Below, in pieces: positions 28,401-64,000 of a stretch of DNA of 64,000 nucleotides. Below the pieces are notes generated by a model. That model did no database searches. It had not been told where the DNA came from and was given only the letters and a program-made list of their open reading frames with translations. Made by a program: the position numbers and the translations under genes. Origin of the DNA: Mactra quadrangularis (lineage: Eukaryota > Mollusca > Bivalvia > Venerida > Mactridae); NCBI GenBank assembly GCA_025267735.1, contig CM046303.1, positions 18,218,403 to 18,282,402 on the forward strand. Direction: 5' to 3'. The stretch's first letter is position 1, and each line of letters opens with the position of its first letter.

Positions 28401-31400
28401 ATATAGGTCTGAGGTTATAAAACTTAACAAATGTCCTCTGAACTTAAACTTACTATTTTTATTCTCAAGCTACTCTCTTTCTGTGGTGTGGCCATGAGTT
28501 AATTCATTGATGTATGAAATCAGTTGAATTTTTTTGAAGTTTTGAAATATAATTATTATCTTATTCTCAACATTTCTTTGAAACAAAACTGAGTGTTAAG
28601 CACAGAATCAGAACATTCATATGTCTTATACCCTCAAACACAATATTTGAGATAAAACAGTATAATATTCATATTCACATCAGTATCACCTAGCTCATGC
28701 TTCACAAAATTTCCCATAGTGAGATTGGTCTCATCTACATTGGTAATATCTTTGTGTCTGTAATTTATTAGATTGATTTATTTGTTTTGTCTCATCATTA
28801 AGATGTGAGATGTGTCTCATATAGTTTGTTTAGATATTTTCTGTGCTATGTTAAAAGAATATGATATTTTGTTGAAAATTTGCCATTAAGAGTTTGCCAT
28901 TTGGGAGAAATTTTGTGAAGCATTCTTGAACTCTATAATGAACTCAAATATTGTTGCCAAGGAGATTTATATATATTTTGCACTGGGTGAAATTGTATTT
29001 ATATGATTTGTATAACTAATATATTCAATGTTTCTATTTTACAGAAAGAAAGTGATGACTTTGATATACAACAATTACATGAGATAAACTGGTTTGTTGG
29101 TAATCTTACCACACCAGCTAATCTCTTCCATGCTCTGAGAAGACAAATATATCTACCATTCAGAAAACCTGTAAGTTTTGATTTTTTTCTCTTTATTCTT
29201 ATTATATTGTATCTACAACTTTATCAATCGACATAATTTGGAACTCTAATTAATGGGTTCTTTCATCCTTCTTTCACCAAAAGTAATAAGCATGAAATAT
29301 CAAAGTGTGGGTACCTGAGGGGGCAAAGGGCTGACTAGCAATATGTTTAGCAAACTGGCCACTGAGTGGGCCTATTGTCTCCTTCTTACCAGAGTGTGTC
29401 ATTTATTCATCTATTGGTAAACATCATACATATACATTGCAATGATTAGTTGTCTAGTACCTCTATCGTTGGCAACCACAGTACTTTCTTCCGTTACTCT
29501 CCATATGTACCATTGGCAATTTGACTGGCAAAATCTTATTTTCAAGAATATGCATGAGACAGGGGAGACTAATCTTTTTCCAATGAAATCACATGTTACA
29601 ATTAAATACTCTTCAATAACAATGACGTCATACTGCGATTTACTTACTTAAAATAGAGAGCAACGCACATGTTTATTTTCTCATTTTGAATGGTAAACGA
29701 AACCTTAGATATAAAACGTAATTTCATTGGCTAGTTTTCCGCAGTGGTTTCCTTGCGGAACCAATGAAACTGCCTCATTAATTATTCATGATTACGAGAT
29801 TTTCCTAACCAAATGGCCGACGGTACATAATGCAGCATAGCGGAGTAATGTATCGTGGGATAACCAACAATGTAGTTCCTCCAGAATCTTACATATTTAT
29901 TTTCTTACAGCTGGTATTGATGACACCTAAAAGTTTACTACGTTTACCTGAGGCTCGTTCTCCATTTAGTGAAATGGTTGAAGGTACATCATTTCAACGT
30001 ATGTATCCAGATACAGGTAAAGCTGCACAGAACCCTGCTGGTGTCAAGAAACTTATATTCTGTTCTGGTAAAGTCTACTATGATTTGGTTAAAGAAAGAG
30101 AAAAGATGGACATGGAATCTACTATTGCCATTGCTAGAGTTGAACAGGTGAGTTTTGTTTTTTAAGTAAATGGGGGCTTATAATTATAATAGTTCACATG
30201 AGAATGCAGTGCTCATGGTTAGCCATTTTGGTTGGTTGGTTCATTTAGTACAGTAGCAACATATATAACCATTTAGGTAATGGGCCAGCATTATATCTAT
30301 AAAGATTGCAAAATTTGTCCTTCACTGATATTCAATTGTTCACATACTAAATAGCCTGAATTTGACACAGAGAAACACGTTATGCAATACCCTACTTATG
30401 TAATTCTAGTTTTTTCCCATTTGTATCATTAAAAAAGTGAAAACTGCATTTATTTTAGTAAGAATATGCAGTCTTTTGTATGTCCTGAAGTGGAGGCAAA
30501 GTTCTATCTTTCCACAATGGAAACACATTGATTTAAACGCTTATAGATGTCATCAAAATTACATCACCAAGAATTACTTGTGCACTAAGTGTTTGAAAAG
30601 TTATAACACTTAAATTCACTTATTAAAGGAAGGGGCTGTTGCAAAAATCTTAAAGTATACTTCAACATGCAGGCTACAAAATGATGCAAAGGGAGAGCAT
30701 GCAGACTAGATTAGTCATCTATTTGTAATCAAGAAAACGTCAGAAAAGGAAGTCATGCAGCTGTCAGAATAATATTATCATCTATTATTAATTTCTATTT
30801 TATTCTACTCTTTAAATTTTCAGATATCACCATTCCCCTTTGACTTGGTGAAAGAAGAAGTATTAAAATATCCTGGCTGTAGATTAGCTTGGGTACAAGA
30901 AGAACATAAAAATATGGGAGCTTGGTTCTATGTAGAACCTCGTATGAGAACTGTTCTCAGAAAAATAGCTAGTACTGATCCCAGTTTGGCAGATATGGCA
31001 TTTAAAAAGTTTGAGTTAGTATCATTTTAGTTTGATTAGTTATATTTCTTAGTTGTTGTTTTTTTTTCAATTATAAAACTGAGCAGATTTATTTTTATAC
31101 TCCGAGTATAAGCATGATTTCTTGGTCAGTTGGTTTCTGGACATTAATTTTCAAAGCAAATATATAAAGCATTGCATTGAAATGTTAGGTGCCTTTATAT
31201 TAAGTCTCAAAACACAGGACAAGTTTGGAAAACATGGGAATAAAATCTATTACTTGGTCACCTTGACACAGTATCAGTTTTTGTTGTGGTATTTTATTCA
31301 TATAGAGGAAACGGACTATTTTGATGGAGTTGCTAACCCTCAAGATTTTTTCTGTTTCAGTATATGTCTGCATGTGGTGTTTTGTTATATTAACTTCAAT

Positions 31401-39311: not shown

Positions 39312-42300
39312 CTGCAACGAAGAATTGAATGATTGTGTGTAGTAAAACATGAGTAACCTTCCCTACAACTCCACACACAGACCTTTATATACTGTACATG
39401 CATATAGACATTTTCTGTATGTAAAATTAAGAGAAAGAATCAATGCTTTGGGTCATAAATCACCTATCTGGCTCCTTGAACTAATGTAGTGTCCAAAACC
39501 ATTTCTAAAAACTGAAAATATCAACCAAAATGAGTGCCAATCAAATTAAATTCTAAATAGTAAAAAAATGTAAGCCACATCTAATTCACACAAGAAATAA
39601 AGTATTGGTTTATCACAATAAAGTGAATTGAAATATTTTTCAATTATGTGACAAATTGAAGACAAAAAGTGTCATTATTCATGAGTAGAAGTACATAAAA
39701 CAGGACTGGCAAGTTTCAATGGATCACTTGAGGATATCTGCTGAATTTAGTCTCAAACAATTATGCCTTTTCTGATAACGTGACTTTCCATTATATTGTA
39801 AGAGGCTATGGAACTATCCAACATAAGAATTTGTAAATTTATTCAAGTTATTTATTCAAGAAAATTACACCAAAATGAAACTGTTTTAATGAGGAGTGGT
39901 TGGTCCTTTTCAGCTGATTTCATTACTCCATGTAGACAGTCCTGATTATAAGCTAGATTATATATATTATTGGTAATACTTAGTAAATAGTTCACCATAT
40001 ATAGCCATGCCAATAATTGTGCAGTAGCAGACTGACAATGTGTAAACAACATATCTCATTAAAGGTGTCAAGATATCAGTGATTACAAATGCCTACTAAT
40101 GTCAACAAAATCTACAAGCAAGAAATCAGGGAGTGATACATAAGTGCTTCTAGTTCAAGTATTCATCAAAATACATCTAAATGATAAATTGACTTCACAC
40201 TCCACACTATCAAATACTGGAGTCAGAAATATGTTACAATTTTAATCATTACTACTTGCTTAATATGTTTTTTTCATAACAATTGAATAAGCTGTCTTAC
40301 TGAATTAAGACACTAACTATGCTTTACAACATAGAAAGCACAGCATCAATGTTAGTATTAAGCAATTATCTGGTTGTTCATCTAAAACCAGTTATATTCT
40401 AAAAGCAAAACTACATTGTATGTCTATCTAAAACCAGTTATATTCTAAAAGCAAAACAACATTGTATGTCTATCTAAAACCAGTTATATTCTAAAAGCAA
40501 AACTACACTGTATGTCTATCTAAAACCAGTTATATTCTAAAAGCAAAACTACATCATATGTCTATCTAAAACCAGTTATATTCTAAAAGCAAAACTACAC
40601 TGTATGTCTATCTAAAACCAGTTATATTCTAAAAGCAAAACTACATTGTATGTCTATCTACAACCAGTTATATTCTAAAAGCAAAACTACATCGTATGTC
40701 TATCTAAAACCAGTTATATTCTAAAAGCAAAACTACATTGTATGTCTATCTAAAACCAGTTATATTCTAAAAGCAAAACTACATTGTATGTCTATCTAAC
40801 ATACTCTTACCTCTTCATAACTTATTCTAACAGTACCATTTTGTTGATGATCTTTAGCTCTAAATTTATCTGTTAGTGTTTTAAGCATCACACATGCTTG
40901 AATGAAATCATCAAACTGTATGTTCCGTGAACCTCTTCTATCAAATGTTCTTATAACAAGATCACAGAATTGTGGAGATCTGTTCAAAATAGAGATAAAA
41001 TGACTATCATTTGTTCTTTATGTGGATCTTACACCAATTTTGTTCAGTATAGTTCTGCTATAAAACACAAGTAGATAAACAAAAAAATTTTGCAAGAGCT
41101 TGCTGCCTCATTAAAAAAATTCTTATCAAGGCAGTAAGTAAACCTACTCATTGTGCATTGAATGGCTTGAATCTTTAAACAATTTTAAACATAATGCCTT
41201 CACTTAACACAATAGTAGGCAAAAGGATGGCCTAAGAAATATGTTGTGACTAAACTGTACCAAGTTACGAAAGTTCATCTGGGAATTTAACCCATAATTC
41301 ATACACCAACATACAGACAAACAATTGACAGAGCTAACTAAGGCATGATTAAAAGGGATATCAGTATAGCAAAATAGTAAACTAATAAAAAATATTTAAT
41401 TGTACATACAAATTATAGCCAAATGTCTGGAATGCTGTATTAAGTTCTCTAGCATCTATATTACCAGATCTATCTTGGTCAAACCTATAAAGAGAAATAA
41501 ATATACAGTATAACCTGCATTAACAGCCACCTGTAATAAGCGGTCACCTGCTGTAAGCAGCCAATCTGGCTTCCTCCCAATGAAAATCACTCTATTTTGC
41601 ACCTGTTATAAGCAGCCACCTGCTGTCTGTGGCTAGTGGTCACCCATTTCCTTAAAAATTGATCAATTTACCTGCATTAAGTGGTCACGATCAATTAAAT
41701 TTTAGAATTAACAAAGTGTCACCATCATTGTATAATGGTTCAGATGTGTGAAACGCCACCTAGTTAAGTCTTTAAACAGTCAAAATTTATCAACTAAGTG
41801 TCATCACATAAATTAAGACTTCTAATATACAACTGACATTGTCAGTTGTGCCCTTTTTGAAGATCATTTAATAAGAAACTGCATAATTAGTTATCTTAAA
41901 TAAAATTGGACAAATCAAATATATAATATATAGCTTATATCTAAATTTTTTATTTATTTTTTTTACAAATTTTGATTTAATTAATTGTTGTTTTCTTAAT
42001 TAAGATTATTTTGAATTAGTATTTACATAAATGTTATGGGTAAAGCCAGTAAAAATAATCACTCACTGCTGCTTGACTATTCAAAGCATTTTTATCTTAA
42101 CCTGGATTAAGTGGTCACCTGCTGTAAGCAGCCAATATTGTCACTTCCCTTCACTGGCTGCTTAATGCAGGTTATACTGTATATCATCTACTACTCAATT
42201 CAACAACTTTAATTTATGTTTGTAATAAAGCAGAATAACATGATACTATTCCCATTCCTTTTCTCCACTATACTCAGTTCAATTTTCACTTCTCCCAGTG

Positions 42301-48767: not shown

Positions 48768-51700
48768 CTGAAACATAAAAATATATTATAAATATCTCTT
48801 TTCCACTGTACATCTACACGGCCCCTAAAATCTTTGGACAAAATCTGTCATTATATAATGTTTCTTACATACTTAGTTCTGTATTTCGTTAGAGATATTT
48901 TTCGCAAATATAAAATAACATAATCCGTCCACAAGATGACATACATCACTTATCATCCAGGATGATATCTTTTTAACAATGTAAATATAAAAAAATCGTA
49001 TTTTCACTGAATAACGCTATGTTTCACCAAAAAGCCAGAAAGATAATGTGATATTTACCATGTCCAGTTTTCCCCCATCCTGATACATGACATTTTTTAC
49101 CCGATGTATATTCCTCATTAACATGTGGAAGACATGCTGGTTGTACATAATCATTAAACTTTATACCAGAACCCAATAAAGGGCTTATCTTTAACAATGC
49201 TATGTCATAGTTATAAATCTTCACTGAAAATATACAAAAAATAATGAGTACTTTTAACGGTTAAATGACGTTGCAAATATGAGGAAAGGTCAGTTTGACA
49301 TTTATTCAGATTGGGAAGCAACCCATACATGAGAAGAAATGCTCTGATAGATAAGGTAAAGCAATTGAAGTTTCAACTTTTGTGCATTTCTGTACTTGCA
49401 GTAAACATAAATAATAATAGGGTTAGACACATTGTATAACACATGCTCATGACTGAGGCAATCTAGAGGGCAATAATTAACCCAATGTGATGATATGATC
49501 AAATAAGCCAGTTACTTCAAGTTACTGAATGCCCAGTTATAAAAATCTGAGCGAAAAAGTCAAGCATGAGAGTTTCGTCTTGAAAGGTGCTAATACATAC
49601 CGTCATATGAAGGATGCAATATAATTTGTTCCAGTTTGAATTCTTGTTCATATTCATCATCTACCTTGTTGTTATGGTCACCAGTTCTTACAGCTATCAA
49701 TTCTTTTCTTTTATCACTACAATAATCAAGAAAACATCATTGTTTTCATACAGAAATTTAGAAATCATTTTATGTAACTACAATGTATATCATTGTCATG
49801 ATACTTTGGGGTATTTTGTTAAATAATAAAGCTGTTTCATTGATTAAAGCAAGAGATTTCTACTGAGATCAAGCTAATAAAATTTTGGTTGTTCTCAAAG
49901 CACAGACTGGCTTTCTTGAAATATACATGCATGCTTTAGGTTATTTTACATGCTTATATGCTTAAATATCTTCTTATTGACGAAAATTTAAGTTCTAACA
50001 TTAAGTTTTAATGGAAAAGGAGTTGTCACCAAGCTTCATGAATATTCAAGTCAATGAAGCTTAAAGAAGACATATACATGTATAGTGTCTTTAGTGGATC
50101 TGAACTGTGCCGGCCCCTCTAAGTATGAGTCATGTCTCACAAAAAGATTAAATGTTATTTCTTCATAACGGTACAGTTTTTATACTAGTATAAAACAGAA
50201 ATGTTGAAATTCATAAACATCTGACATACCTGAAGCAATGTGCTGCACTAAGAATCCATTCTGGACTTAATATAGTTCCACCACACAAGTGACTGTAGTT
50301 TCCTTTTTTTTAGTTTATCGTATGTTCCTACACCAGCTTGCCATGGGTAAAAACCTTTAGCTGCTTCAGACCCTCCAATAACACGCGGAGCTAATTCTTC
50401 CTTTTTACGTTCTGACTCCCCCATCTTCTTCCTTGATGATTGTTTCAGTGGTCTTAAACCTTATATAGAAAATACTTTATACATTACACCAGTCTGGGAA
50501 ATAAATTGGTGAAGGTTGTCAAGAAAAATCACATTAAAATTTGGACTTTCAAAACTTTATTTCGGGCAACCGAGTTTACAAACAAGATAAGTGCTTGCTG
50601 CTTCAATGACCGGTTTGGACAACCACTTTTGCATCTTAATTTCATTGACTGTTAGGCTCACAAAATTAGTCATAAATTTGAAATCTCAAATTCAGAACTA
50701 CGCAAGCTGTAGGTTGCCAAAAAACGTCGTTCAAAACTATACTAGAAAGTAATATTAACACCATTACAGGTCAAAATAGTATTTCACTTATTCTCATGTA
50801 AAACACTTTAATAATAGACATGCAGGTCGTTTACTTTACAGTTATAGCAAATGCTTTTAAGCAGTAAACTTTTCAACTGAAAGGGATAACAGTAATATGT
50901 TCTCAGATACATGTTTTTAATGTTTTAAGTCACAATTTAATGGTATTTTAAACTGATGGAGTTTTATAACCATATTCAACTATTTGTCCTTTATCGATAA
51001 GCCAAGAAGGCTAGCGTGCTATATAGAAATAAGACATTGGTACTTAATCTAATATAACTCGAATTTAAAACTATTTCTCATTCTATCCCATTCAGTTTCG
51101 AATAAATCAATTCAACCCCTTTCTTATGGTATATATTTTTTTAAATTAAAAATAAAAAGTTGGGGGAATTTTGAGTTAAACCTACTATGAATTTCAATAC
51201 GAAATGCAATTTTTTACCTCAACATTGGCAATATTTTGTGTAATTTCTTTTTTGCTATTTAAAAATCATTTCTATCCCATTCGGATTCAATAATTACCTT
51301 TTTTGTTTTTGAAATCAGTGGTCCAGGTTTTATAATTTTTGAAGAATATTTAGTTAGGGGAAATAGCGATTAGTTTAGCGAGTTTCGTTTTTTTTCTTTT
51401 ATTCGGGAAATTCCGCTTTGTTATACGAAAACAGGCAAAGATATTCGAACGACCAATAGCATACGACTCTTTATCGCGACCGACCAGCGGTCAATTATAT
51501 AATTTGTTATCTAGCATTATAATCAGAGCCACAATATGAAGACATATTTTTCAACAGTAAACTTAAAAACTAATTGCTTCACAAGCATGAAGTTATCGAC
51601 ATGCATTATAAGAGATAACATTTACTGCTCAAACCATTGTGCATTCTACATTTCAGTTCGACTAAGTGTCCATAGTGGAGTACTAATATAGTTAGATAGA

Positions 51701-54700
51701 TAGATTTATATCGGCATAGAATAGATACAATGGTACAGCATAAAATTCTTGTACATGATATGCACACCAACGCCAAGGATAACACAAGAAAGAGAAACTC
51801 TTATTTTCATTGTGGTCCTTGGGTTGGCGCAAGACAAAGAGAGGCAAACGATCAAAATAGTATAATGAAAGGTATAAATATAGATGTGTCATTAATTAAT
51901 ATCACATAATTGATAACTTTGCAAATAAGATCATAAAATAAATTAACACAAATTTAACACTCATTAAATCCTGAAAGAGCTAGATATTATCACAGACAAT
52001 TGGAACAATTAGTATAAAGGCAGTGCAAAATAAAAATTTATTTAAATTCAGAAATATATACAGCCGAAACATCATCAGTTATAACAATATGGGTTTTTAA
52101 AAAAGATAAATGAACTTAAAATAATTTCAAATTACTTGAAAGGTATTGTTTGATAGAAGATTTAAATGAATGAAAGTTATTTAATTGTATTAAAAAAGGT
52201 TGTAGACTGTGCCATAATTTGGCACCAAAATAAACAAAGGCTTTAACCATAACTTTTTACTTTAGGTAAAGCGTATGCACCTTTTTGACTGAGCTTTGTA
52301 CTGAAAGAATGTATGTTCCTTAGTGGCAAAAAAGTGGTTTTGTAAGAAGAGGGGAGCTAACCCATGTTTTACTTTTATATGATCACAAAATATTCATTTA
52401 TATGTATAAATATCTTGTTAGAGGTGTTTGAAATATAAAAATGTATATTTTCATTGCAGTCGAAGTAGAGTTACTTTAAATAAAGGGGCTTTACAGGTAG
52501 ATTATAAGATTTTTACTCTTTCGTCTATGAAAATAAGTGAATGTGACAAGATTAAAAAGTATTTTTTTTCCATTTTAAGTTTACTTGTTACAAAAGTTAA
52601 AAATCGTTTGGAATTGTATAATTCGTTATTTGTTTCTTATTTTTACGCAAGTTATGCAGTAAAATACTTATTTAAGAAGTAGAAAATACATTATCTAATT
52701 TCATCAAAAGATACTGTTTAAATGATTAATTGAAGAACTTCACCTTTAGCTGGTTTCCATTACAAGAGAATTGATAAAATGACTAATAAAATCATGTGAT
52801 TTTCAGCTCATAAAACATAAACAAATACGCAATACGCATAGCTGAGAAAAAATACAAAAATACTGTTGCCTGTGCATGTATTTACTCGTCTATTTTGCCA
52901 ACTCACACATTTTAATAAAGTTTAAAAACAAAACCTTTGCCCTTTCTTCATATTATTTTTATCAATGTATTATCTGGGCTTCATTATTTGCAGAAAGCAT
53001 TTTCTCTTTTTCATTATTTCTGGTACGACCTATGCATTGATGAAATTTATTACACTCTTTATTGGACCCCTATTGGTGCGTTTATCAACATTCAAGCGGA
53101 TTTCGTTTTTATGCAAGGACCATGTAAACAGAGTCCTTGTTTTATGACAGAATACTGCTATTATTATTACACCATCCAGGTCGTAAAACATATACAGGGA
53201 AGCGAGGATGATATTAGAATTTAATGTTTAAACAATGAATCTGTGAAAGGCTATCTGTCTTTTTTGGGGCTGTTTCTGTGAAGTGTTAAAAAGATTTTAA
53301 CTAATAAAAATTGCCGGTGTTTAGAATTTGAAGGTTAAAGCATCTATTCTCATCAATGATTGATGTTCCAGATATGTGTCTTTATATGAAAATATCTATA
53401 CTATTAAATTTGCGAGTTTCCTGTTTTGTGGAAGAAACTGCGCAACTTTGAATAAATCATTTGTTTGTCGCTGGAGCACATATATACCGGCATACCAAGT
53501 TGACAATTCTTTTTTGACAAAGCCTCTTGGTATTTGCAAAAACTGCCAAAATTCAACAAAAAATGTTTTTTTTGTGTCTAAAAATTGATAAAACTAAAAA
53601 TAGACACGTCAAACCAAACTCCCCGCAGCGGTTATCTCCCTTTATCAAATCAATAATTAAGTAGCAAAGCGTGACTTAAGCACTGTGAGGAGTTTGCTAA
53701 AGCCCGTGCTTGCAAGGGCTCCCACCTAGTATTACATATTTTTAGCGTTTTTATAATCAGCTATTGTGTTCAAAATTGCCCATCAGAGTTATAGCGTCTA
53801 TTAAGTGTACACGTTATATATGCATGTTGATTGATGTTTTTAATTTTCCTAATTGAAATAATTATTTATGTTTATTATAAGTATTTATATGTTGCAAATG
53901 TAAATACATAAACGGTGTTGTGGAAATTATATGTATGATACATTGTTTATAAATTTTAATTCTTTTCATTTTAAGGAAACGTTAATAAAACTCAATGGAA
54001 TAAATTTTTATTCTTATCGCGCACTTCATGGTTTGTTATTTATAAGCTTACATTGTGTAATTTGATATATCAAATGTTGGTAATAGACGTCATGCAGCGT
54101 CTATCACGTGATATATTGATGGGGTTGATCATTTTTTTATCAATTTATGATCACAGCAGGGTGGCATATCGGAAATTTCCGAACATTACCGAGTGCAACA
54201 ACGGAGGCTTGGATGATTATCGATTTATCGAGTAGTCAAATCAGTAAGTTACGAAAGGGAAAAAAGTTGGACATGTTTCAGATGTTTAACAAATCTATAA
54301 AAACATGTTCTTGTCAATATTCACGAAGATTTCATCATCACTAAAGATAGTTTCATAACCATCAAATAAAATATTTCATATTATGCACTTATAAAAAAGT
54401 AATCCTCATAGCAAATATATTGAATCCAATTCTTGGTTGCACAAATTATAAATACAATTATCTCACCACAAGTAAATAAACCAAAGACATCGTCATCATT
54501 TCCAGATTGACCTACATTTGATTCAAGGTCGCCTTCATTAAAACATTCCACACCAGCATCTTCTTCATGTCCACAATTATTGATACCCCACTCAGCATGA
54601 TTACATTGTGAGATAGATGATTCCTGACCATTACAATCTACATCATCCAACAATATACGCAGACTGTCACTGCCAGGTCCATAAAAACCTTCAATCTTAG

Positions 54701-57700
54701 CTGAACCATTACTGTATAAGATAAAAGATAAAGAAGTTTTAATTTATTTCCCATATTATCAACAAATAATGCAAGTTATAGAGGCATTGTGGTACTAACA
54801 GTGTATTGACTGACAAATACTTACCTGACTGCTTTTACTCTACCTTCCTAATGAGCAAGGAAGCTCCTAAAACTTTTGTATTTTGATTGTCTTTGGTATG
54901 ACCAAGCAAGGATCCAACCTGATATTTCCTGGACCTCAAGCAAACACTCTACCACTAGTCAGTACAATGGACAGTAAGAAATACTGATATAATAAATATA
55001 GTTCATTAAATAGCTATATATTGTTAAAGTAATACAACGTCAAACTTAATCAGTGTACGACTTTGGTTTTGACTTGTTTAAAAGTTGGCCTGGCCTCAAA
55101 TTGTATATCAGTTTTGCAGGTAGCAAATTTTAAGACAGACAATATTTGCAAAAGAGTTGGACCACAGCTTCACATGTTTGGCTAACAATTTTATTTCAGC
55201 ATAGCCGACTCAACAACTTAAATGTGTCTGCCCAAAACTAGTCAAACAACATGTAGATAAAGACACAGGCTACTGGCATAAAACAGTCCCCACAACAAAT
55301 ATTGTATACAAACGTATATATATATGTTTGTATACAATATTTTTGTGGAGACTGTTTTACGCCGGCGGCCTGTGGATAGAGAAGATTTTACATTAGCCTG
55401 TTGGTTTGTTTGTTGGGTTTAACGCCGTAGCAACACATTGTATATGTCATATCAAACACTCTTGATTAAGGTGTTAACCAACTACTAAGCATATACCTTC
55501 TTCAGTGACTGACAACTGCCCTACATAATAAAAAATCATTGGTAGGAAGGAAAATGGCTGTAGAATTAATTTCATGACCAAACTCCATGAAAGTATGTTC
55601 CGTTCAGAATCAAACCCACGACCCTTTAATCAGTGGCATTGCAGAGACTGATAGACTTGACTTACTTGTATCCCAACATTCTACAAACAGTGAAAGCATC
55701 ACTATCATCCCATCCATCATCACATATAGTACCACGTTCACCATTATATATCACCTCAACCCGACCTGACGATGATGTCGGACCATCTACTAGTTCTATA
55801 ATAACATCATCAGATGAAACTGAAATACATCAAGTCATGTTTTATTATTATATTCATAAGAACTACCAAGGAAATTAAACATTCAGTGACGGATCAACAG
55901 TGATCAATAGCAATGATGTTGTAGCTTTGTGGTCTATTTTAAAATCTAGCAATGAACCCCTGTCTTGATGTAAAAAGAACATACAAAAAATTTCGGGTAC
56001 AATTGTGTACATTATCTCCTTTTTCATCGGAACAATCAGGTAAACAATTACATGTTCCATCACAGACATCACAAGGATCAATACATACACCATTATTACA
56101 TGAATATTTATCACTTGATCAGGCTGTAAATATAATATATAAAATGTAATATTTTAATAAATATAATTAAATGACAATGCATATTGAGTCATTCCTAAGT
56201 TTTTTTTAAATCAAATAGCCATTTAAATAAGTCTTTATTGAAAATATCTAACTGGAAGTCTTTTGCATTGAATATATTATTCAATTCATTTTCCCATCAG
56301 AAATATTTAACAGTGTGTTTATCATTGGAAATACAATACAAATAGAGTTAGTCATTGTTGTCATGGTTAACTTTGCCACAGAGTGACCTTGATCTTTGAG
56401 CAATGGTTCTGGAGAAAGTGTTTGAAATCCTAAATTACAAACAAAATTATGGTCCCAACATGAAATTGCTAACAGACGGACAGACATGTGGTCATACAAT
56501 GTATACCATAACTAAATATGACCCTTCTAGTGTATAACAACGAGTTAATAGCAACTGCTACCTGGTAATTCATTGTCATAATCAAACATCGGTGTATACA
56601 GGTGATATCACCAATATTTGCCAAGCTTGTAATTGCTAAAATATCTTTTATTTTCGTTGAGATTTTTATACAAACCTTCCTGTGTATTACAAGATACACC
56701 AGCCACCTCAAATGAATTACAATCATGATTTTTCCATCCAGTATGTTCACATTCTGTGATAGAATCTTCTATACCTATACAATTAACTTCATCTAGGAAG
56801 AAATCACCACTTCCTGAACCATACTTAGAACGATTGGATGCTTTAGCTGACACTCTGTAAATTCAATAAAGAAGATACACTGTATACAGTTCCCTTAAAA
56901 ATCTCTTGGACAAATTATTAATTTGAAATAAAAAAGTGATCACGAATACTGCAAGTCAATTTACTACACTTAAAACTTATTCATGTAAACTAATTAATAC
57001 TGATTTTGGAATTTATAGATATCTCTATATTTTTGAAGGTAAATATGCATTGGTTTTCACAAAAACAGGATTTTGATCAAGCACAATTGGAGGGTGCTGT
57101 ATCGTAAGCTAATTAATTTTTTAACAATTATTTTTAGATAATGAACGCAGCTTTAAAATTTTACTCTTGATAAACTAGAACAGTTACAACACATTTCATT
57201 TGACTTAGGTGTCAAATATGGGCATGATAAGACCAAAGCCTATGAGCCAAACCTTTTAAGCTTAGTCAATCTGCTATTAATGCATGTTTTACCAAAGGAT
57301 ATAAAACAACACAAAAATCTGATTTTACAAAAAATGAATAAAATGGACAATCATCTAAACCTGACTTTAAAAAAACACAAACTGCCTTTTGGAGACAGTT
57401 GCCAATGTAGAAAAATCATAGATAACCCTACCCATTATATCCTAACATATTACAGACTACAGCGGCATCATTATCATCCCACCTATCATCACATATCACA
57501 CCCCATTCACCAAGATATTTGATTTCAACACGTCCAGAGTGTTCACTGTCTCCATCAACCAATCTTATTTCTATAGACAAGACAAGACACATTTTATTCT
57601 AGAAAATTAAGGCCATCGGCCCAAAATTCAGCAATACAATATGTGGTTATGTTAGCGTATAGTAATATATCTGGATAAAATATGAAATTACTGATTTACA

Positions 57701-60700
57701 TGTAATTCATAATAATTATTGATGAAAATTAGGGCAACTGACCACAAATACAACATTACAGTATACAAATTTGTGTTGTTATGTTGATTTAAAGTTTAAA
57801 AATAATACAATATATAAATTATTTAACTACTTAATAATGCATATACAAATGTATAAGAAAACTATGATATACTTGTCTCTTCTACACCTGTTACATCATA
57901 CATAGACTTGGTAAAATTGTTAAGTAACACATGACTTGACATTCAGGGTTGTCTAATTGACACTGACTAGCAATATTTGGGTTTGGGCATCTTGTTACTG
58001 CTAGTAAACTTTAGGAAGTAAACACATAGCTGGTTGTCCAATCTGGCAAACTGGTTTGAAAATACATGTTAGGCCTTGCTATGTAAGGTACTTCAAGCTT
58101 TATATCTATTATTTCTATACTAGGACGAAAAAGAAACGCCGGGTACATAAAATATGCAACACATATTTTATTGCTTGGCCTAAAATAATGAAAATCGGTC
58201 AGATTTATGTGTTGTTCGCTGTCGAACGGTACACACGTTTAAAACTACACAATACCATACCTCTTCGCACCATGAGAGGCACGTGCTCAAATGCAAGATT
58301 CCAATGCAGGGTAAGGTCATTGAGTGTGCCCAAGGAAATGTTCAGTCTATTTGATACTGTTCAAGTATTCAGATCGATTTTTCAACGTTTACTTCAAATT
58401 GAGCTATTTGCATCAATGCCGCGATTGTCGGAAGTCGAGCGAGGACAAGCTATAGCAATGTTTGTGCAGGGTCAAGGCCAACAGCAGGTTGCTGCATATT
58501 TTTGTGTGCATATTCGAACTATTGAACGTCTTGTTCAACGTCTGCGAGTGACGGGGAGGGTCAACGACCGACCGCGAAGTGGACGTCCGCGCGTCACGAC
58601 GCCACGTCAGGATCGGTTTATGACACTTTCTCACTTACGTAATCGCCATCTCACAGCTAGCGAAACTGCAAATAACACTATAGGCAGTCATAATCGCCAT
58701 ATTCATCCCGAAACAGTTCGAAACCGCTTACGCAACAGTGGCCTAAGAGCCCGACGTCCCTATGTCGGTCTGCCGCTAACTCCTGTGCGTCGCCAACGCC
58801 GTTTGGCTTGGTTACAAGCACACTCAACACGAAATTTTCCTATGAGGCAATGGAGACGGGTATTCTTGAACGGGCTCCCACCTAGTATTACTTATTTTTA
58901 GTGTTTTTATAATCAGCTATTGTGTTCAAAATTGCCCATCAGAGTTATAGCGTCTATTAAGTGTACACGTTATACATGTATATGCATGTTGATTGATGTT
59001 TTTAATTTTCCTAATTGGAATAATTATTTATGTTTATTATAAGAATTTATATGTTGCAAATGGTAATACATAAACGGTGTTGTGGAAATTATATGTATGA
59101 TACATTGTTCATAAATTTTGATTCTTTTCATTTTAAGGAAACGTTAATAAAACTCAATGGAATAAATTTTTATTCTTATCGCGCACTTCATGGTTTGTTA
59201 TTTATAAGCTTACATGAAAAAAACTACATTGTGTAATTTGATATATCAAATGTTGGTAATAGACGTCATGCAGCGTCTATCACGTGATATATTGATGGGG
59301 TTGATCATTTCTTTATCAATTTATGATCACAGCAGGGTGGCATATCGGAAATTTCCGAACATTACCGAGTGCAACAACGGAGGCTTGGATGATTATCGAT
59401 TTATCGAGTAGTCAAATCAGTAAGTTACGAAAGGGAAAAAAGTTGGACATGTTTCAGATGTTTAACAAATCTACAAAAACATGTTCTTGTCAATATTCAC
59501 GAAGATTTCATCATCACTAAAGATAGTTTCATAACCATCAAATAAAATATTTCATATTATGCACTTATAAAAAAGTAATCCTCATAGCAAATATATTGAA
59601 TCCAATTCTTGGTTGCACAAATTATAAATACAATTATCTCACCACAAGTAAATAAACCAAAGACATCGTCATCATTTCCAGATTGACCTACATTTGATTC
59701 AAGGTCGCCTTCATTAAAACATTCCACACCAGCATCTTCTTCATGTCCACAATTATTGATACCCCACCCAGCATGATTACATTGTGAGATAGATGATTCC
59801 TGACCATTACAATCTACATCATCCAACAATATACGCAGACTGTCACTGCCAGGTCCATAAAAACCTTCAATCTTAGCTGAACCATTACTGTATAAGATAA
59901 AAGATAAAGAAGTTTTAATTTATTTCCCATATTATCAACAAATAATGCAAGTTATAGAGGCATTGTGGTACTAACAGTGTATTGACTGACAAATACTTAC
60001 CTGACTGCTTTTACTTTATCTTCATAATGAGCAAGGAAGCTCCTAAAACTTTTGTATTTTGATTGTCTTTGGTATGACCAAGCAAAGTTCCAACCTGATA
60101 TTTCCTGGACCTCAAGCAAACACTCTACCACTAGACAGTACAATTGACAGTAAGAAATACTGATATAATAAATATAGTTCATTAAATAGCTATATATTGT
60201 TAAAGTAATACAACGTCAAACTTAATCAGTGTACGACTTTGGTTTTGACTTGTTTAAAAGTTGGCCTGGCCTCAAATTGTATATCAGTTTTGCAGGTAGC
60301 AAATTTTAAGACAGACAATATTTGCAAAAGAGTTGGACCACAGCTTCACATTTTTGGCTAACAATTTTATTTCAGCATTGCCGACTCAACAACTTAAATG
60401 TGTCTGCCCAAAACTAGTCAAACAACAAGTAGATAAAGACACAGGCTACTGGCATAAAACAGTCCCCACAACAAATATTGTATACAAACGTATATATATA
60501 TATGTTTGTATACAATATTTTTGTGGAGACTGTTTTACGCCGGCGGCCTGTGGATAGAGAAGATTTTACATTAGCCTGTTGGTTTGTTTGTTGGGTTTAA
60601 CGCCGTAGCAACACATTGTATATGTCATATCAAACACTCTTGATTAAGGTGTTAACCAACTACTAAGCACATACCTTCTTCAGTGACTGACAACTGCCCT

Positions 60701-63700
60701 ACATAATAAAAAATCATTGGTAGGAAGGAAAATGGCTGTAGAATTAATTTCATGACCAAACTCCATGAAAGTATGTTCCGTTCAGAATCAAACCCACGAC
60801 CCTTTAATCAGTGGCATTGCAGAGACTGATAGACTTGACTTACTTGTATCCCAACATTCTACAAACAGTGAAAGCATCACTATCATCCCATCCATCATCA
60901 CATATAGTACCACGTTCACCATTATATATCACCTCAACCCGACCTGACGATGATGTCGGACCATCTACTAGTTCTATAATAACATCATCAGATGAAACTG
61001 AAATACATTAAGTCATGTTTTATTATTATATTCATAAGAACTATCAAGGAAATTAAACATTCAGTGACGGATCAACAGTGATCAATAGCAATGATGTTGT
61101 AGCTTTGTGGTCTATTTTAAAATCTAGCAATGAACCCCTGTCTTGATGTAAAAAGAACATACAAAAAATTTCGGGTACAATTGTGTACATTATCTCCTTT
61201 TTCATCGGAACAATCAGGTAAACAATTACATGTTCCATCACAGACATCACTAGGATCAATACATACACCATTATTACATGAATATTTATCACTTGATCAG
61301 GCTGTAAATATAATATATAAAATGTAATATTTTAATAAATATAATTAAATGACAATGCATATTGAGTCATTTCTAAGTTTTTTTAATCAAATTGCCATTT
61401 AAATAAGTCTTTATTGAAAATATCTAACTGGAAGTCTTTTGCATTGAATATATTATTCAATTCATTTTCCCATCAGAAATATTTAACAGTGTGTTTATCA
61501 TTGGAAATACAATACAAATAGAGTTAGTCAATGTTGTCATGGTTAACTTTGCCACAGAGTGACCTTGATCTTTAAGCAATGGTTCTGGAGAAAGTGTTTG
61601 AAATCCTAAATTACTAACAAAATTATGGTCCCAACATGAAATTGCTAACAGACGGACAGACAGACAGGTGGTCATACAATGTATACCATAACTAAATATG
61701 ACCCTTCTAGTGTATAACAATGAGTTAATAGCAACTGCTACCTGGTAATTCATTGTCATAATCAAACATCGGTGTATACAGGTGATATCACCAATATTTG
61801 CCAAGCTTATAATTGCTAAAATATCTTTTATTTTCGTTGAGATATTTATACAAACCTTCCTGTGTATTACAAGATACACCAGCCACCTCAAATGAATTAC
61901 AATCATGATTTTTCCATCCAGTATGTTCACATTCTGTGATAGAATCTTCTATACCTATACAATTAACTTCATCTAGGAAGAAATCACCACTTCCTGAACC
62001 ATACTTAGAACGATTGGATGCTTTAGCTGACACTCTGTAAATTCAATAAAGAAGATACACTGTATACAGTTCCCTTAAAAATCTCTTGGACAAATTATTA
62101 ATTTGAAATAAAAAAGTGATCACGAATACTGCAAGTCAATTTACTACACTTAAAACTTATTCATGTAAACTAATTAATACTGATTTTGGAATTTATAGAT
62201 ATCTCTATATTTTTGAAGGTAAATATGCATTGGTTTTCACAAAAACAGGATTTTGATCAAGCACAATAGGAGGGTGCTGTATCGTAAGCTAATTAATTTT
62301 TTAACAATTTTTTTTAGATAATGAACGCAGCTTTAAAATTTTACTCTTGATAAACTAAAATAGTTACAACACATTTCATTTGACTTAGGTGTCAAAAATG
62401 GGCATGATAAGACCAAAGCCTATGAGCCAAACCTTTTAAGCTTAGTCAATCTGCTATTAATGCATGATTTACCAAAGGATATAAAACAACACAAAGATCT
62501 GATTTTACAAAAAATGAATAAAATGGACAATCATCTAAACCTGACTTTAAAAAAACCTTTTGGAGACAGCTGCCAATGTAGAAAAATCATTGATAACCCT
62601 ACCCATTATATCCTAACATATTACAGACTACAGCGGCATCATTATCATCCCACCTATCATCACATTTCACACCCCATTCACCAAGATATTTGATTTCAAC
62701 ACGTCCAGATTGTTCACTGTCTCCATCAACCAATCTTATTTCTATAGACAAGACAAGACAAATTTTATTCTAGAAAATTATGGCCATCGGCCCAAAATTC
62801 AGCAATACAATATGTGGTTATGTTAGCGTATAGTAATATATCTGGATAAAATATGAAATTACTGATCTACATGTAATTCATAATAATTATTAATGAAAAT
62901 TAGGGCAACTGGCCACAAATACAACATTACAGTATACAAATTTGTGTTGTTATGTTGATTTAAAGTTTAAAAATAATACAATATATGAATTATTTAACTA
63001 CTTAATAATGCATATACAAATGTATAAGAAAACTATGATATACTTGTCTCTTCTACACCTGTTACATCATACATAAACTGGGTAAAATTGTTAAGTAACA
63101 CATGACTTGACATTTAGGGTTGTCTAATTGACACTGACTAGCAATATTTGGGTTTGGGCATCTTGTTACTGCTAGTAAACTTTAGGAAGTAAACACATAG
63201 CTGGTTGTCCAATCTGGCATACTGGTTTGAAAATACATGTTAGGCCTTGCAATGTAAGGTACATCAAGCCTAATATCTATTATTTCTAGTTCATCACAGC
63301 AGCTGTCAGTTATCCCACTGACTTTCAATAGACTGGTCTTAAGTATTAATCCAAAGCTTTTAACAAAGTATTAATCACATACCCTTGTCTGCAGCGAAAT
63401 TTTGCTCTTCATGGTGCAGAGGAAGTCAGAAGGATGGCAATAGAAAACATTTTATGACTGAAATCCATGAAAGTTCGTATTTCACAGTAATTCAAATCTG
63501 CAGACCCTAGGATCATAGCTACCAAGTGAGCTAACCAGCGAGCTTTGTAAAACAAGAATGATTCATGATGATGTCATTTCCTAAATCCATCAAAGCCAAA
63601 TATTGTGAGCTTTATAAATGAGTAATTTGCTAAGTTTTCAAATGAGCCAGTCTTAAAGTTTGTAAATATGGAAGTAAAAACGATTTATCCTTCTTTTCAA

Positions 63701-64000
63701 AATTAAAAAAAAAAGTTAATGCAGAATTATTCGCGCATTAAATAGCAACAGTGACTCTCCAACAGATTTTACCTCATGCCCAGTTCAAACATCAACAATA
63801 TCCTGTTAAATCTTATAAATTGAGTAGTCTTCCATTGAAAATGAAGTTGGAAGTCTTACTTTGACTATTTATTAAAGGGAAGTAATTCACGTTCAATATA
63901 TAACATAAACATAGATTATCTCCCTTACCACAATCCTTTTCATCACTAGAATCTCCACAATCATCGATATTATTACATACATTAGATGTTGATATGCATT
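48463..64000 (-). CDS. LDLa-SRCR(x4)-trypsin-like mosaic serine protease, 5' partial
   Basis: Gene span, minus strand. Exons in coding order: LDLa 64000-63929 (partial); SRCR 62741-62603 + 62034-61856; [LDLa-like 61301-61163]; SRCR 60997-60844 + 59887-59643; SRCR 57570-57432 + 56854-56676; [LDLa-like 56123-55985]; SRCR 55819-55666 + 54711-54467; S1 protease 50459-50230, 49716-49601, 49223-49059, 48767-48463. With the bracketed exons left out, all phases agree. Each SRCR domain has six cysteines and two exons, as in group A. The S1 domain has RVIGG, SAAHC, YDIALLK and GDSGGPL, and an Asp six residues before the catalytic Ser, which predicts trypsin-like cleavage. Secretion is inferred because the 5' end is outside the window. 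The architecture is close to neurotrypsin (SRCR repeats + S1) and Drosophila Tequila. The A8 run at 50304-50311 shifts the frame in the His exon, so this may be a damaged gene or contain a sequence error. Confidence 0.88.
49059..49223 (-). CDS. protease S1 exon 3 (catalytic Asp)
   Basis: Acceptor tttcag, donor gtaaat, phase 1 to 1. It encodes [34 protein letters not shown] and [21 protein letters not shown] carries the charge-relay Asp. Confidence 0.95.
49601..49716 (-). CDS. protease S1 exon 2
   Basis: 116 nt, phase 2 to 1. Acceptor tgtag, donor gtatgt. It encodes [32 protein letters not shown]. LxVRxGDHN...LHPxYD is the usual segment between His and Asp in S1 proteases. It is too short to show as a long frame. 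Confidence 0.9.
50230..50459 (-). CDS. protease S1 exon 1 (activation site, catalytic His), frameshifted
   Basis: Acceptor ataag, donor gtatgt. The first frame gives [30 protein letters not shown] and [12 protein letters not shown] second frame gives [14 protein letters not shown] and ILSAAHCF. The switch falls at an A8 run (plus-strand T8, 50304-50311). The exon is 230 nt, whereas 229 nt would keep frame from the SRCR exon into the next S1 exon. R-VIGG is the zymogen cleavage site. Confidence 0.85.
50460..54466 (-). other. 4-kb protease intron
   Basis: Joins the last SRCR exon to the S1 domain. It contains a LINE 3' remnant (51688-52400) and the left edge of the tandem duplication (53716). 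No further exon was recognised; plus-strand frames at 52428-52682 and 52937-53224 have no known domain. Confidence 0.6.
51688..52400 (-). mobile_element. 3' remnant of a LINE (non-LTR retrotransposon)
   Basis: On the minus strand, about 52400-52116 reads as a worn reverse-transcriptase C-terminus: [13 protein letters not shown], then after a frame break [15 protein letters not shown] and [15 protein letters not shown], then TAA at 52118-52116. A ~400-bp 3' UTR follows and ends in a (TCTA)n tail at 51690-51705. It is 5' truncated with a stop/frameshift, so inactive. Confidence 0.72.
54467..54711 (-). CDS. SRCR domain C-half exon, copy A (joins S1)
   Basis: 245 nt, phase 2 to 1. Acceptor tacag, donor gtgaga. 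It encodes [56 protein letters not shown], then an acidic linker ending GLFTC. It continues into the S1 exon as TCGLRPL in frame. Confidence 0.92.
55264..55374. repeat. long near-perfect palindrome, copy A
   Basis: Arms of about 50 bp (cacaggc..ggc.taaaacagtc.ccaca..aatattgtatacaaac) flank an AT-dinucleotide centre. The mate is at 60440-60552. Probably a foldback element or MITE inside the duplicated intron. Confidence 0.8.
55403..55660 (-). repeat. inverted SINE, copy A
   Basis: The plus strand starts ttgtttgttgggtttaacgc (tail), passes gacaactgccctacataat, and ends at the box B complement atcaaacccacgacc. It is a 2855-family SINE in minus orientation, ending a few bases from the splice donor of the SRCR exon at 55666. 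Confidence 0.85.
55666..55819 (-). CDS. SRCR domain N-half exon, copy A (second SRCR)
   Basis: 154 nt, phase 1 to 2. Acceptor tttcag, donor gtaagt. It encodes [40 protein letters not shown] and [10 protein letters not shown]. [20 protein letters not shown] is the SRCR signature. Confidence 0.95.
55985..56123 (-). pseudogene. decayed LDLa-like exon, copy A
   Basis: Between ttacag and gtatgt, 139 nt. It reads [35 protein letters not shown] and NVHNC, an LDL-receptor class A pattern with extra Cys. Entering in phase 1 from the SRCR exon gives a TGA at 56121-56119 where the first LDLa Cys should be. The exit phase (2) does not fit the next exon (needs 1). The intact LDLa exon at 63929 exits in phase 1. 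Skipping this exon restores frame. Confidence 0.7.
56676..56854 (-). CDS. SRCR domain C-half exon, copy A (first SRCR)
   Basis: 179 nt, phase 2 to 1. Acceptor ttacag, donor gtttgt. It encodes [54 protein letters not shown] and NTQE. Confidence 0.93.
57432..57570 (-). CDS. SRCR domain N-half exon, copy A (first SRCR)
   Basis: 139 nt, phase 1 to 2. Acceptor ctatag, donor gtaggg. It encodes [39 protein letters not shown] and NMLGYN. Its polypyrimidine tract is the end of a LINE-like 3' tail (see 57571-57950). Confidence 0.93.
57571..57950 (-). mobile_element. LINE 3' tail, copy A
   Basis: The minus strand ends ...gggccgatggccttaatttt, aataaaatgtg and a short (TGTCT)n-like tail directly at the splice acceptor. 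A second related piece (gaaaattagggcaactgacc) lies about 150 bp upstream. No coding part remains. A repeat is likely; the LINE class is inferred from the tail structure. Confidence 0.5.
58118..58871 (+). mobile_element. Tc1/mariner-like element, 5' part, at the duplication junction
   Basis: Begins next to TA with actaggacgaaaaagaaacg (presumed terminal inverted repeat and leader) and runs into a transposase frame from 58416. It stops exactly where copy B of the tandem duplication starts. The 3' half and the other terminal repeat are absent. Confidence 0.8.
58416..58871 (+). pseudogene. Tc1/mariner-like transposase, N-terminal fragment
   Basis: The ATG at 58416 gives 152 codons of element-derived sequence: [58 protein letters not shown], then the second DNA-binding half with [19 protein letters not shown], and [12 protein letters not shown]...WRRV. 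This is the bipartite helix-turn-helix region with a GRPR-like hinge. The frame then runs into flanking DNA and stops at 58901. The break comes just before the first catalytic Asp (usually V-L-F-x-D-E in this family), so the fragment cannot transpose. The start is chosen at MPRLS because that is typical; the longer upstream frame to 58056 is leader and flank. Confidence 0.85.
59643..59887 (-). CDS. SRCR domain C-half exon, copy B
   Basis: 245 nt, same boundaries as 54467-54711. It differs by NHAGWG for NHAEWG. The exit phase 1 (TGT G|) matches the entry of the copy A SRCR exon at 57570 and reads TCEIRLVDG across the junction. Confidence 0.9.
60440..60552. repeat. long near-perfect palindrome, copy B
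   Basis: Same element as 55264-55374, with one extra TA in the centre. Confidence 0.8.
60580..60838 (-). repeat. inverted SINE, copy B
   Basis: Copy of 55403-55660, same orientation and position relative to the SRCR exon. Confidence 0.85.
60844..60997 (-). CDS. SRCR domain N-half exon, copy B (second SRCR)
   Basis: 154 nt, phase 1 to 2. It matches copy A with [12 protein letters not shown] and [10 protein letters not shown]; no amino acid change was noticed. Confidence 0.93.
61163..61301 (-). pseudogene. decayed LDLa-like exon, copy B
   Basis: 139 nt. It has the same TGA (61299-61297) and the same 3' phase mismatch as copy A, so both defects predate the duplication. Codon differences from copy A are minor (ctagga for caagga on the plus strand). 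Confidence 0.7.
61856..62034 (-). CDS. SRCR domain C-half exon, copy B (first SRCR)
   Basis: 179 nt, phase 2 to 1. It encodes the same [28 protein letters not shown] block as copy A, ending NTQE. Confidence 0.92.
62603..62741 (-). CDS. SRCR domain N-half exon, copy B (first SRCR)
   Basis: 139 nt, phase 1 to 2. It differs from copy A by DSEQSG for DSEHSG and GVKCDD for GVICDD. It is the first SRCR after the LDLa exon at 63929, with which its phase agrees. Confidence 0.92.
62742..63120 (-). mobile_element. LINE 3' tail, copy B
   Basis: Copy of 57571-57950, again ending in a (TGTCT)-like tract at the acceptor of the SRCR exon. Confidence 0.5.
63300..63555 (-). repeat. decayed tRNA-derived SINE
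   Basis: The reverse complement shows a worn head (cgctggttagctcacttggt; box B-like agatttgaattactg) and a body with tttcatggatttcagtc. It lies between the duplication and the LDLa exon. Confidence 0.55.
63929..64000 (-). CDS. LDL-receptor class A exon (partial, window edge)
   Basis: Donor gtaagg, exit phase 1. The minus strand reads [20 protein letters not shown] then KDC, matching the C-terminal two thirds of an LDLa module, whose calcium-binding acidic residues (D..D..DE) are present. The rest lies beyond the window. It provides the intact comparison for the two decayed LDLa-like exons. Confidence 0.82.

What the first reader, a model, noticed from the sequence alone, without database searches (positions are those of the whole stretch)
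58118..58871. Truncated Tc1/mariner element exactly fills the duplication junction
The element starts next to TA where copy A ends (after tatttcta) and is cut where copy B begins (gggctccc). Copy B's own right edge has no element. This fits a break within a newly inserted transposon repaired by invading gggctccc 4.4 kb away, or aberrant transposition, creating the tandem duplication. A transposon end at a duplication breakpoint is direct evidence for mechanism.
Basis: partly seen in the sequence, partly recalled or inferred. Interest (0 to 1): 0.75.

Follow-up and report, generated by a model that had tools for sequence, protein, structure and literature searches.

The report
Tandem duplication joined through two transposons
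A 4.4 kb piece of a gene was copied side by side in what is probably a bivalve, and the seam lies in the middle of one jumping gene and the tail palindrome of another, which shows fairly clearly how the copy was made but is one more example of a known kind of accident.

Summary
Copy A (53709-58117) and copy B (58865-63288) are a direct tandem duplication with 61 substitutions in 4398 aligned sites. The 750 bp between them are the left half of a DD34E Tc1-type transposon; at least nine other copies lie in the same genome. New here: (1) paralogous genes downstream carry the unit once, without the Tc1, so the single copy is ancestral. (2) Copy B's right edge matches the unoccupied TA site of the two paralogs that cover it, so B came from a chromosome without the Tc1. 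(3) Copy B's left edge lies inside a second transposon, a 335 bp non-autonomous Helitron (53395-53729), at the centre of its 3' terminal palindrome. (4) The two elements share only CTT at the seam, not gggctccc. Best reading: a Tc1-bearing chromatid, broken near the Tc1 midpoint, was joined by microhomology or template switch to the Helitron palindrome of a Tc1-free chromatid 5.16 kb upstream. Two SRCR domains are doubled in frame. A larger duplication followed by Tc1 insertion and deletion is not excluded. Misassembly is unlikely but untested by reads. The seam does not look like a transposase product. A clear instance of a known kind.

The parts
53395..53729 (+). Non-autonomous Helitron (TC...CTAG, 335 bp), the element that holds the left breakpoint; nested in a dispersed repeat
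   Evidence: 40 of 40 scored matches (itself included; 2064 candidates, only 40 scored) at 95-100% start at query 1 and reach at least 335; ends and 3' palindrome seen in 7 of 7 other copies read; absent from this site in paralogous gene 1
53702..53719 (+). 3' terminal palindrome of the Helitron, GCCCGTGC-TT-GCAAGGGC (one mispair in this copy); its centre (53709-53711, CTT) is the left breakpoint
   Evidence: sequence; family form GCCCGTGC-TT-GCACGGGC in 6 of 7 other copies; palindrome scan
53709..58117 (.). Copy A of the duplicated unit
58118..58867 (+). Left half of a Tc1-family transposon, cut at nt 748 of about 1525 (counted from CTAGG), before the first catalytic D
58416..58865 (+). Open frame for the DNA-binding half of the transposase (HTH_Tnp_Tc3_2), which runs on across the seam and stops in copy B at 58901
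58865..58867 (.). CTT, shared by the Tc1 (ATTCTT|CACC in intact copies) and the Helitron palindrome centre (GTGCTT|GCA): 3-nt microhomology of the seam
58868..58871 (.). GAAC: either the Helitron arm GCAC with one change, or a Tc1-derived filler (TTGAACGGG occurs about 92 bp further on in 6 of 7 other copies read)
   Evidence: the pattern GGTATTCTTGAACGGGAT with up to one mismatch has no match other than the seam itself
58865..63288 (.). Copy B of the duplicated unit
63287..63288 (.). Unoccupied TA target in copy B, equivalent to the Tc1 insertion site of copy A
   Evidence: same ATTTCTAGTT in paralogs 2 and 3
54467..57570 (-). Copy A exons of two SRCR domains: 57432-57570, 56676-56854, 55666-55819, 54467-54711 (717 bp, in frame)
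   Evidence: splice sites and translation; Pfam SRCR in six-frame reading
59643..62741 (-). Copy B exons of the same two SRCR domains: 62603-62741, 61856-62034, 60844-60997, 59643-59887 (717 bp, in frame)

Best explanation
A real tandem duplication made by one non-homologous exchange or template switch between two chromatids that differed by a Tc1 insertion. The chromatid that carried the Tc1 (ancestor of copy A) was broken or stalled near the Tc1 midpoint. Its end was joined, through the 3-nt microhomology CTT, to the centre of the 3' palindrome of a Helitron on a chromatid without the Tc1, 5.16 kb upstream, and continued through copy B and on past the empty TA site. Shown: both breakpoints lie in transposons, the single copy is ancestral, B's Tc1 site equals that of the paralogs, the seam has no long homology, and the predicted coding frame is kept. 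Inferred: the break in the Tc1, the partner being the homologue (or a sister not carrying the insertion), and the pathway (polymerase-theta end joining or replicative template switching). Part of the 1.4% A-B divergence may then be allelic divergence that existed before the duplication.
For: Duplication and edges. Tc1 family, intact ends and cut point. Paralogs 2 and 3 run through the position of the right edge without Tc1 and without a second unit. Paralog 1 lacks the Helitron at the left-edge position. Helitron identity. The cut lies at 0.49 of the element; Tan et al. 2021 (PMC8277862, section 8 read) report internal TE breakpoints and microhomology of median 2 bp for TIR-transposon duplications in animals. 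Searches with 53500-54500 and 62801-63800 found no third copy of the unit or right flank at 90% or more, apart from short dispersed repeats (40 candidates scored in each).
Against: A 3-nt overlap is weak: for two random sequences at least that much is expected in roughly 5% of joins (own arithmetic, equal base use). No allele without the duplication and no reciprocal product were available. The seam reads GAAC where the Helitron family has GCAC or GCAA, so the exact join is ambiguous by up to 7 nt. The folded single strand of the window's Helitron end does not take the simple palindrome as its best structure. A later deletion inside a larger duplication gives the same sequence.
Confidence: 0.6

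Rival explanations
1. Three steps: an older, larger tandem duplication; then insertion of the Tc1 in copy A; then a deletion from the Tc1 midpoint to the Helitron palindrome of copy B, which trimmed both copies to the present edges.
For: Needs only ordinary events; the deletion explains at once why the element is truncated exactly where B begins. Internal deletion is seen in this family: L031 joins nt 111 to nt 939 with a 4-nt overlap, L005 is 1469 bp long against 1523-1528 in five others.
Against: One event more than the best explanation; no trace of a larger duplication in the window outside 53709-63288. Neither point is strong.
Confidence: 0.2
2. Tc1 excision left a double-strand break; the gap was refilled from a sister copy of the Tc1, synthesis stopped at nt 750, switched to the Helitron palindrome on the homologue, and ran through the unit to the other side of the break.
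For: This is the excision-driven form of the gap-filling model of PMC8277862 (passages and section 8 read); it predicts the left Tc1 end intact, the right end missing and copy B without an element.
Against: No excision footprint is recognised; that paper finds breaks within the element, not excision, the better fit in animals. It needs two templates.
Confidence: 0.1
3. False duplication: two haplotypes, one with the Tc1 and one without, placed in tandem by the assembler.
For: A-B divergence of 1.4% is in the range of allelic divergence in bivalves (recalled, no call); B looks like the Tc1-free allele; false duplications occur in published assemblies (PMC9516828, search listing only).
Against: No N in the window; the seam is a base-level join of a Tc1 interior to a Helitron palindrome with only CTT in common, which offers no overlap for an assembler to use (inference); no stray haplotig of either edge among the scored candidates.
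Confidence: 0.07
4. Alternative transposition (reversed-ends transposition) as described for maize Ac, which makes tandem direct duplications directly.
For: Transposon at the junction of a tandem direct duplication (PMC3744419, abstract read).
Against: That mechanism uses transposon termini and leaves target site duplications at the new junction; here the join is at the Tc1 midpoint and inside the Helitron, and the only Tc1 of this family in 193.6 kb is the window's own.
Confidence: 0.02

Closest known systems
Pack-TIR / gap-filling duplications by TIR transposons in animals (Tan et al. 2021, PMC8277862)
   Same: Break inside a Tc1/mariner-type element, microhomology of a few nt, source of the copied DNA within 15 kb, template switching
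   Different: A Pack-TIR keeps both transposon ends with the copied piece between them; here the right half is lost and the copied 4.4 kb piece runs on into flanking gene sequence, giving a tandem duplication
Microhomology-mediated tandem duplication (FoSTeS/MMBIR or theta end joining; classes recalled)
   Same: Non-homologous seam with 3 nt of microhomology
   Different: Both breakpoints fall in DNA transposons, one at the centre of a terminal palindrome
Tandem direct duplications by reversed-ends transposition, maize Ac (PMC3744419, abstract)
   Same: Class II transposon at the junction of a tandem duplication
   Different: No terminus, no target duplication and no second element at the seam
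Tc1 family of IS630-Tc1-mariner
   Same: TIR CTAGGACGAAAAAGAAACGCCGG, TA at both ends, HTH domains, DD34E in intact copies
   Different: The window copy is a 5' half without any catalytic residue

Membership tests
Tc1 (DD34E) transposon family | Terminal inverted repeats flanked by TA | tested here: met
   Six of six copies read for both flanks (L002, L004-L008) have TIRs and TA on both sides; the window copy has the left end only
Tc1 (DD34E) transposon family | HTH transposase with D, D, 34 residues, E | tested here: met
   Pfam PF01498 in the window piece; the script found spacing 34 in 3 of 6 copies (L002, L004, L005); L006 (T in place of the I that the script looked for before E), L007 (longest frame shifts away after the second D) and L008 (longest frame ends before the second D) gave none. 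The window piece itself ends before the first D
Helitron | 5' TC, 3' CTRR, palindrome about 10 nt before the 3' end | tested here: met
   TCTATAYTAT...GCCCGTGC-TT-GCAMGGGC-TCCCAYCTAG in the window and 7 of 7 other copies read; the defining motifs are recalled
Helitron | Insertion between A and T without target duplication | tested here: met
   T on the right in 7 of 7, A on the left in 5 of 7 and T in 2 of 7 other copies. At the window site A|T; the surrounding dispersed repeat reads A|T there in 4 of 4 copies L013-L016, paralog 1 reads A|A
Helitron | Rep-helicase of an autonomous partner | not tested
   no search made
Pack-TIR | Copied DNA enclosed between both ends of one TIR transposon | tested here: not met
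   No right half of the Tc1 in the 193.6 kb examined
Reversed-ends transposition duplication | Junction made of transposon termini with target site duplication | tested here: not met
   Seam at the Tc1 midpoint and the Helitron palindrome
NAHR tandem duplication | Long homology shared by the two breakpoints | tested here: not met
   Only CTT shared; no self-BLAST hit of the element to the left flank at E 1e-5
Microhomology-mediated duplication | Short overlap of a few nt at a non-homologous seam | tested here: met
   CTT, 3 nt; the pathway itself cannot be tested with sequence alone

The most novel reading that the evidence does not exclude
Helitron terminal palindromes act as recurrent break or template-switch sites, so that abundant Helitrons seed tandem duplications at the centre of their 3' hairpin. 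Besides copy B, two other places in this genome hold only the last 21 and 24 nt of this Helitron joined to DNA without other Helitron sequence nearby (L052, L054), and two more copies have internal deletions ending in the palindrome (L050, L053).
Probability: 0.12. Interest if true: 0.6.

Novelty: new member of a known kind. Interest (0 to 1): 0.38.

Why it matters
Tandem exon duplications lengthen SRCR proteins, but their seams are often erased with time (general knowledge). Here the seam, the ancestral single-copy state (paralogs as outgroups) and both broken transposons can all be read, so that Helitron insertion and Tc1 insertion are shown to precede the present seam. It illustrates that a duplication bounded by a transposon need not be made by its transposase, and that a tandem pair can be born already divergent if the two halves come from different homologues.

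Tried and rejected
Rejected: gggctccc as microhomology (the intact Tc1 copies read do not have it there). Rejected: the Tc1 as a late insertion exactly at an existing seam (the match of A to B ends at the Tc1 terminus because B is the empty site). Rejected: NAHR. Not claimed: a hot spot at the palindrome centre. A pattern for Helitron 3' arms lacking the 5' arm found 3 places including B; the same test 3-4 nt upstream found 2 and just outside the palindrome 0. The patterns differ in how easily AT-rich DNA passes them. A further control (asked) and the count of full palindromes did not complete. Single-strand DNA folding of the window's Helitron end gave z -2.05, 9 of 200 shuffles folding as well, and its best fold is not the simple palindrome, which speaks against leaning on a hairpin in this copy. 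Only two of nine further places were read with wider flanks (L031, L032): both have other repeat arrays nearby, none with an edge at the Tc1, so that check is incomplete.

The Tc1-derived filler reading is kept as a variant, not rejected: in 20000 mononucleotide shuffles of the lost half of L002 the 9-mer TTGAACGGG appeared in 0.25%, but the 7-mer GAACGGG in 4% and the 6-mer TTGAAC in 19%; the test was made after the fact.

Full report
What is there. The 64 kb window (GC 31.7%, no N) lies at C11:18218403-18282402 of a 979 Mb genome in 447 contigs. The nearest named transposase relatives are from the scallop Ylistrum balloti (84 and 83% identity; an unnamed one is 92%), and neurotrypsin-like proteins of bivalves are among the hits of the host gene, so I take it to be a bivalve (inference). 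Two direct copies, A 53709-58117 and B 58865-63288, differ by 61 substitutions in 4398 aligned sites (1.39%; 28 transitions, 33 transversions) and six indels.

The element. 58118-58867 is the left half of a Tc1-family transposon. In the same genome eight other places match it at 94-98% over its whole length and one at 99% over its first 111 bp; 40 of 850 candidates were scored and the tool says such counts are lower bounds. Of these nine, eight keep both ends (six read, two) and L003 lacks its right end in the stretch fetched. In six of six read for both flanks (L002, L004-L008) TA stands next to CTAGG and CCTAG. Full copies are 1523-1528 bp (five read; L005 is 1469) and the script found a DD34E spacing in 3 of 6 frames examined. 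The window copy stops after CTT in FF|TDES, before all catalytic residues. It has 11 private substitutions in 748, the eight other copies compared 0.4-1.7% (L031 left out), so it is not visibly younger than its relatives. The window has TTTCTATACTAGG where a plain insertion of CTAGG at the TA of TTTCTAGTT would give TTTCTACTAGG; one extra TA is unexplained.

The outgroups. Downstream on the same chromosome, at window coordinates of about 98-111 kb, 131-152 kb and 170-187 kb, lie three paralogous genes, 71-96% alike by segment (matches of 150 bp or more). They show the segments of the unit once; the one addition is a further SRCR-exon-like match of 150 bp, 73% alike, in paralog 2 (146807-146955). 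Paralogs 2 and 3 run without interruption across the position of B's right edge and read ATTTCTAGTTT there, as B does (ATTTCTAGTTC), with no Tc1 and no footprint. Paralog 1 covers only the left part of the unit, to 55942. So the single copy is ancestral, and the Tc1 site in B looks as if never occupied.

The left edge. Paralog 1 passes from the equivalent of 53394 to that of 53733 with three bases between. Paralog 2 has about 1.5 kb of other DNA at this place and no match to the Helitron there; paralog 3 does not cover it. In the window 335 bp, 53395-53729, begin TCTATACTATTAAA, end CTAG and carry the 3' palindrome GCCCGTGC-TT-GCAAGGGC: a non-autonomous Helitron (family motifs recalled). Forty of 40 scored genomic matches, the window's own included, start at its first base and reach its last (2064 candidates). 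Seven others read in full have the same ends; 6 of 7 have GCACGGGC and 1 of 7 GCAAGGGC as the 3' arm. The Helitron sits inside a dispersed repeat whose copies are more divergent, 79-85%. Copy B keeps only the Helitron's last 14-21 bp. The seam reads TATT-CTT-GAACGGGCTCCCACCTAG. CTT is shared with the Helitron, where it is the centre of the palindrome (53709-53711). GAAC differs by one base from the family arm GCAC; alternatively it is filler, since TTGAACGGG occurs about 92 bp further on in 6 of 7 other Tc1 copies. No other place in the genome has GGTATTCTTGAACGGGAT within one mismatch except the seam itself. Positions within 3 bp of a palindrome centre of this kind make up 2.9% of the window, 0.08% if GC-rich; this was asked after the fact.

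Is the palindrome a hot spot? Helitron 3' arms without the 5' arm occur at three places: B, an internal deletion (L050) and a 21-nt stub on other DNA (L052). A control 3-4 nt upstream gave two, an internal deletion (L053) and a 24-nt stub (L054), and a control just outside the palindrome none. The numbers are too small and the patterns unequal, and the best single-strand fold of the window's Helitron end is not the simple palindrome, so I do not claim it.

Mechanism. Because B's target site equals the empty sites of the paralogs, B descends from a chromatid without the Tc1, while A carried it. The simplest path is one join: left of the Tc1 midpoint on one chromatid, right of the Helitron palindrome centre on the other, with CTT in common. 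That gives exactly Helitron, A, half Tc1, Helitron stub, B, flank. Tan et al. 2021 (PMC8277862; abstract, passages and section 8 read) describe breaks inside TIR transposons, microhomology of median 2 bp and nearby donors in animals; the present case differs in losing the right transposon half. Reversed-ends transposition (PMC3744419, abstract) does not fit an internal cut.

Age and direction. With paralogs as outgroup, of 61 differences 15 are derived in A, 27 in B, 7 are ambiguous and 12 have no outgroup (15 against 27, p 0.09). Coding exons differ at 3 of 717 sites, other sites at 58 of 3681 (p 0.013); all three exon changes alter the protein. Some of this divergence may be older than the duplication.

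Effect on the gene. Each copy holds four predicted exons on the - strand, with AG/GT sites, 717 bp together and thus in frame, coding two SRCR domains. A trypsin-like domain on the same strand lies at about 48.4-49.3 kb (recognised by eye); that it belongs to the same gene is inferred from the shared strand and the same order in the paralogs. The duplicated gene would code four SRCR domains in this stretch instead of two. Expression was not tested.

Artefact. There is no N, searches with 53500-54500 and 62801-63800 found no third copy at high identity among the 40 candidates scored in each, apart from short dispersed repeats, and the seam has no overlap that an assembler could use. Without reads a small chance remains.

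Literature. Searches for tandem duplication with Helitron, breakpoint and microhomology (7 papers), for Helitron, hairpin, double-strand break and tandem duplication (3 papers), and for SRCR with bivalve, tandem duplication and transposable element (1 paper) listed no title or abstract opening that reports this locus or this configuration; they cover open-licence papers only, and of the papers listed I opened only the two named above.

Noticed in passing
L052 (C16:15998155-15998181, - strand) and L054 (C18:22973235-22973265, - strand): Only the last 21 and 24 nt of the Helitron (3' part of the palindrome plus CTAG) joined to DNA without other Helitron sequence in the fetched stretch: orphan 3' stubs like the one at the left edge of copy B.
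   Followed up: partly
window 98000-187000 (C11, beyond the window end; L018-L029): Three further paralogs of the SRCR/protease gene in tandem, two of them with an inverted larger Helitron of the same end sequences at the equivalent of 50676-50680.
   Followed up: partly
window 55264-55374 and 60440-60552: A nearly self-complementary element of about 111 bp (MITE-like palindrome) in each copy.
   Followed up: no
window 56010-56123 and 61188-61301, - strand (approximate): LDLa-like exon in each copy; read by eye, the frame that codes the domain meets a TGA just after the likely acceptor, so the exon may be dead or spliced otherwise.
   Followed up: no
L031 (C9:28917650-28918348): Internally deleted Tc1 of the same family: nt 1-111 joined to 939-1530 with a 4-nt overlap, both ends kept.
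   Followed up: partly
window 40380-40799: Tandem repeat with a 92-bp period, copies about 97% alike.
   Followed up: no
window 8143-8709: Tandem array, copies about 74-78% alike.
   Followed up: no
window 62813-63040 (and its copy A equivalent): Short dispersed repeat, 87-95% alike at 36 of the 40 places scored.
   Followed up: no
window 14186-14585 and 29465-29874: Inverted repeat pair, 84% alike over 410 bp.
   Followed up: no
window 58110-58122: One TA more than expected at the Tc1 insertion site (TTTCTATACTAGG); either the terminal TA belongs to the element or the target allele had an extra TA.
   Followed up: partly
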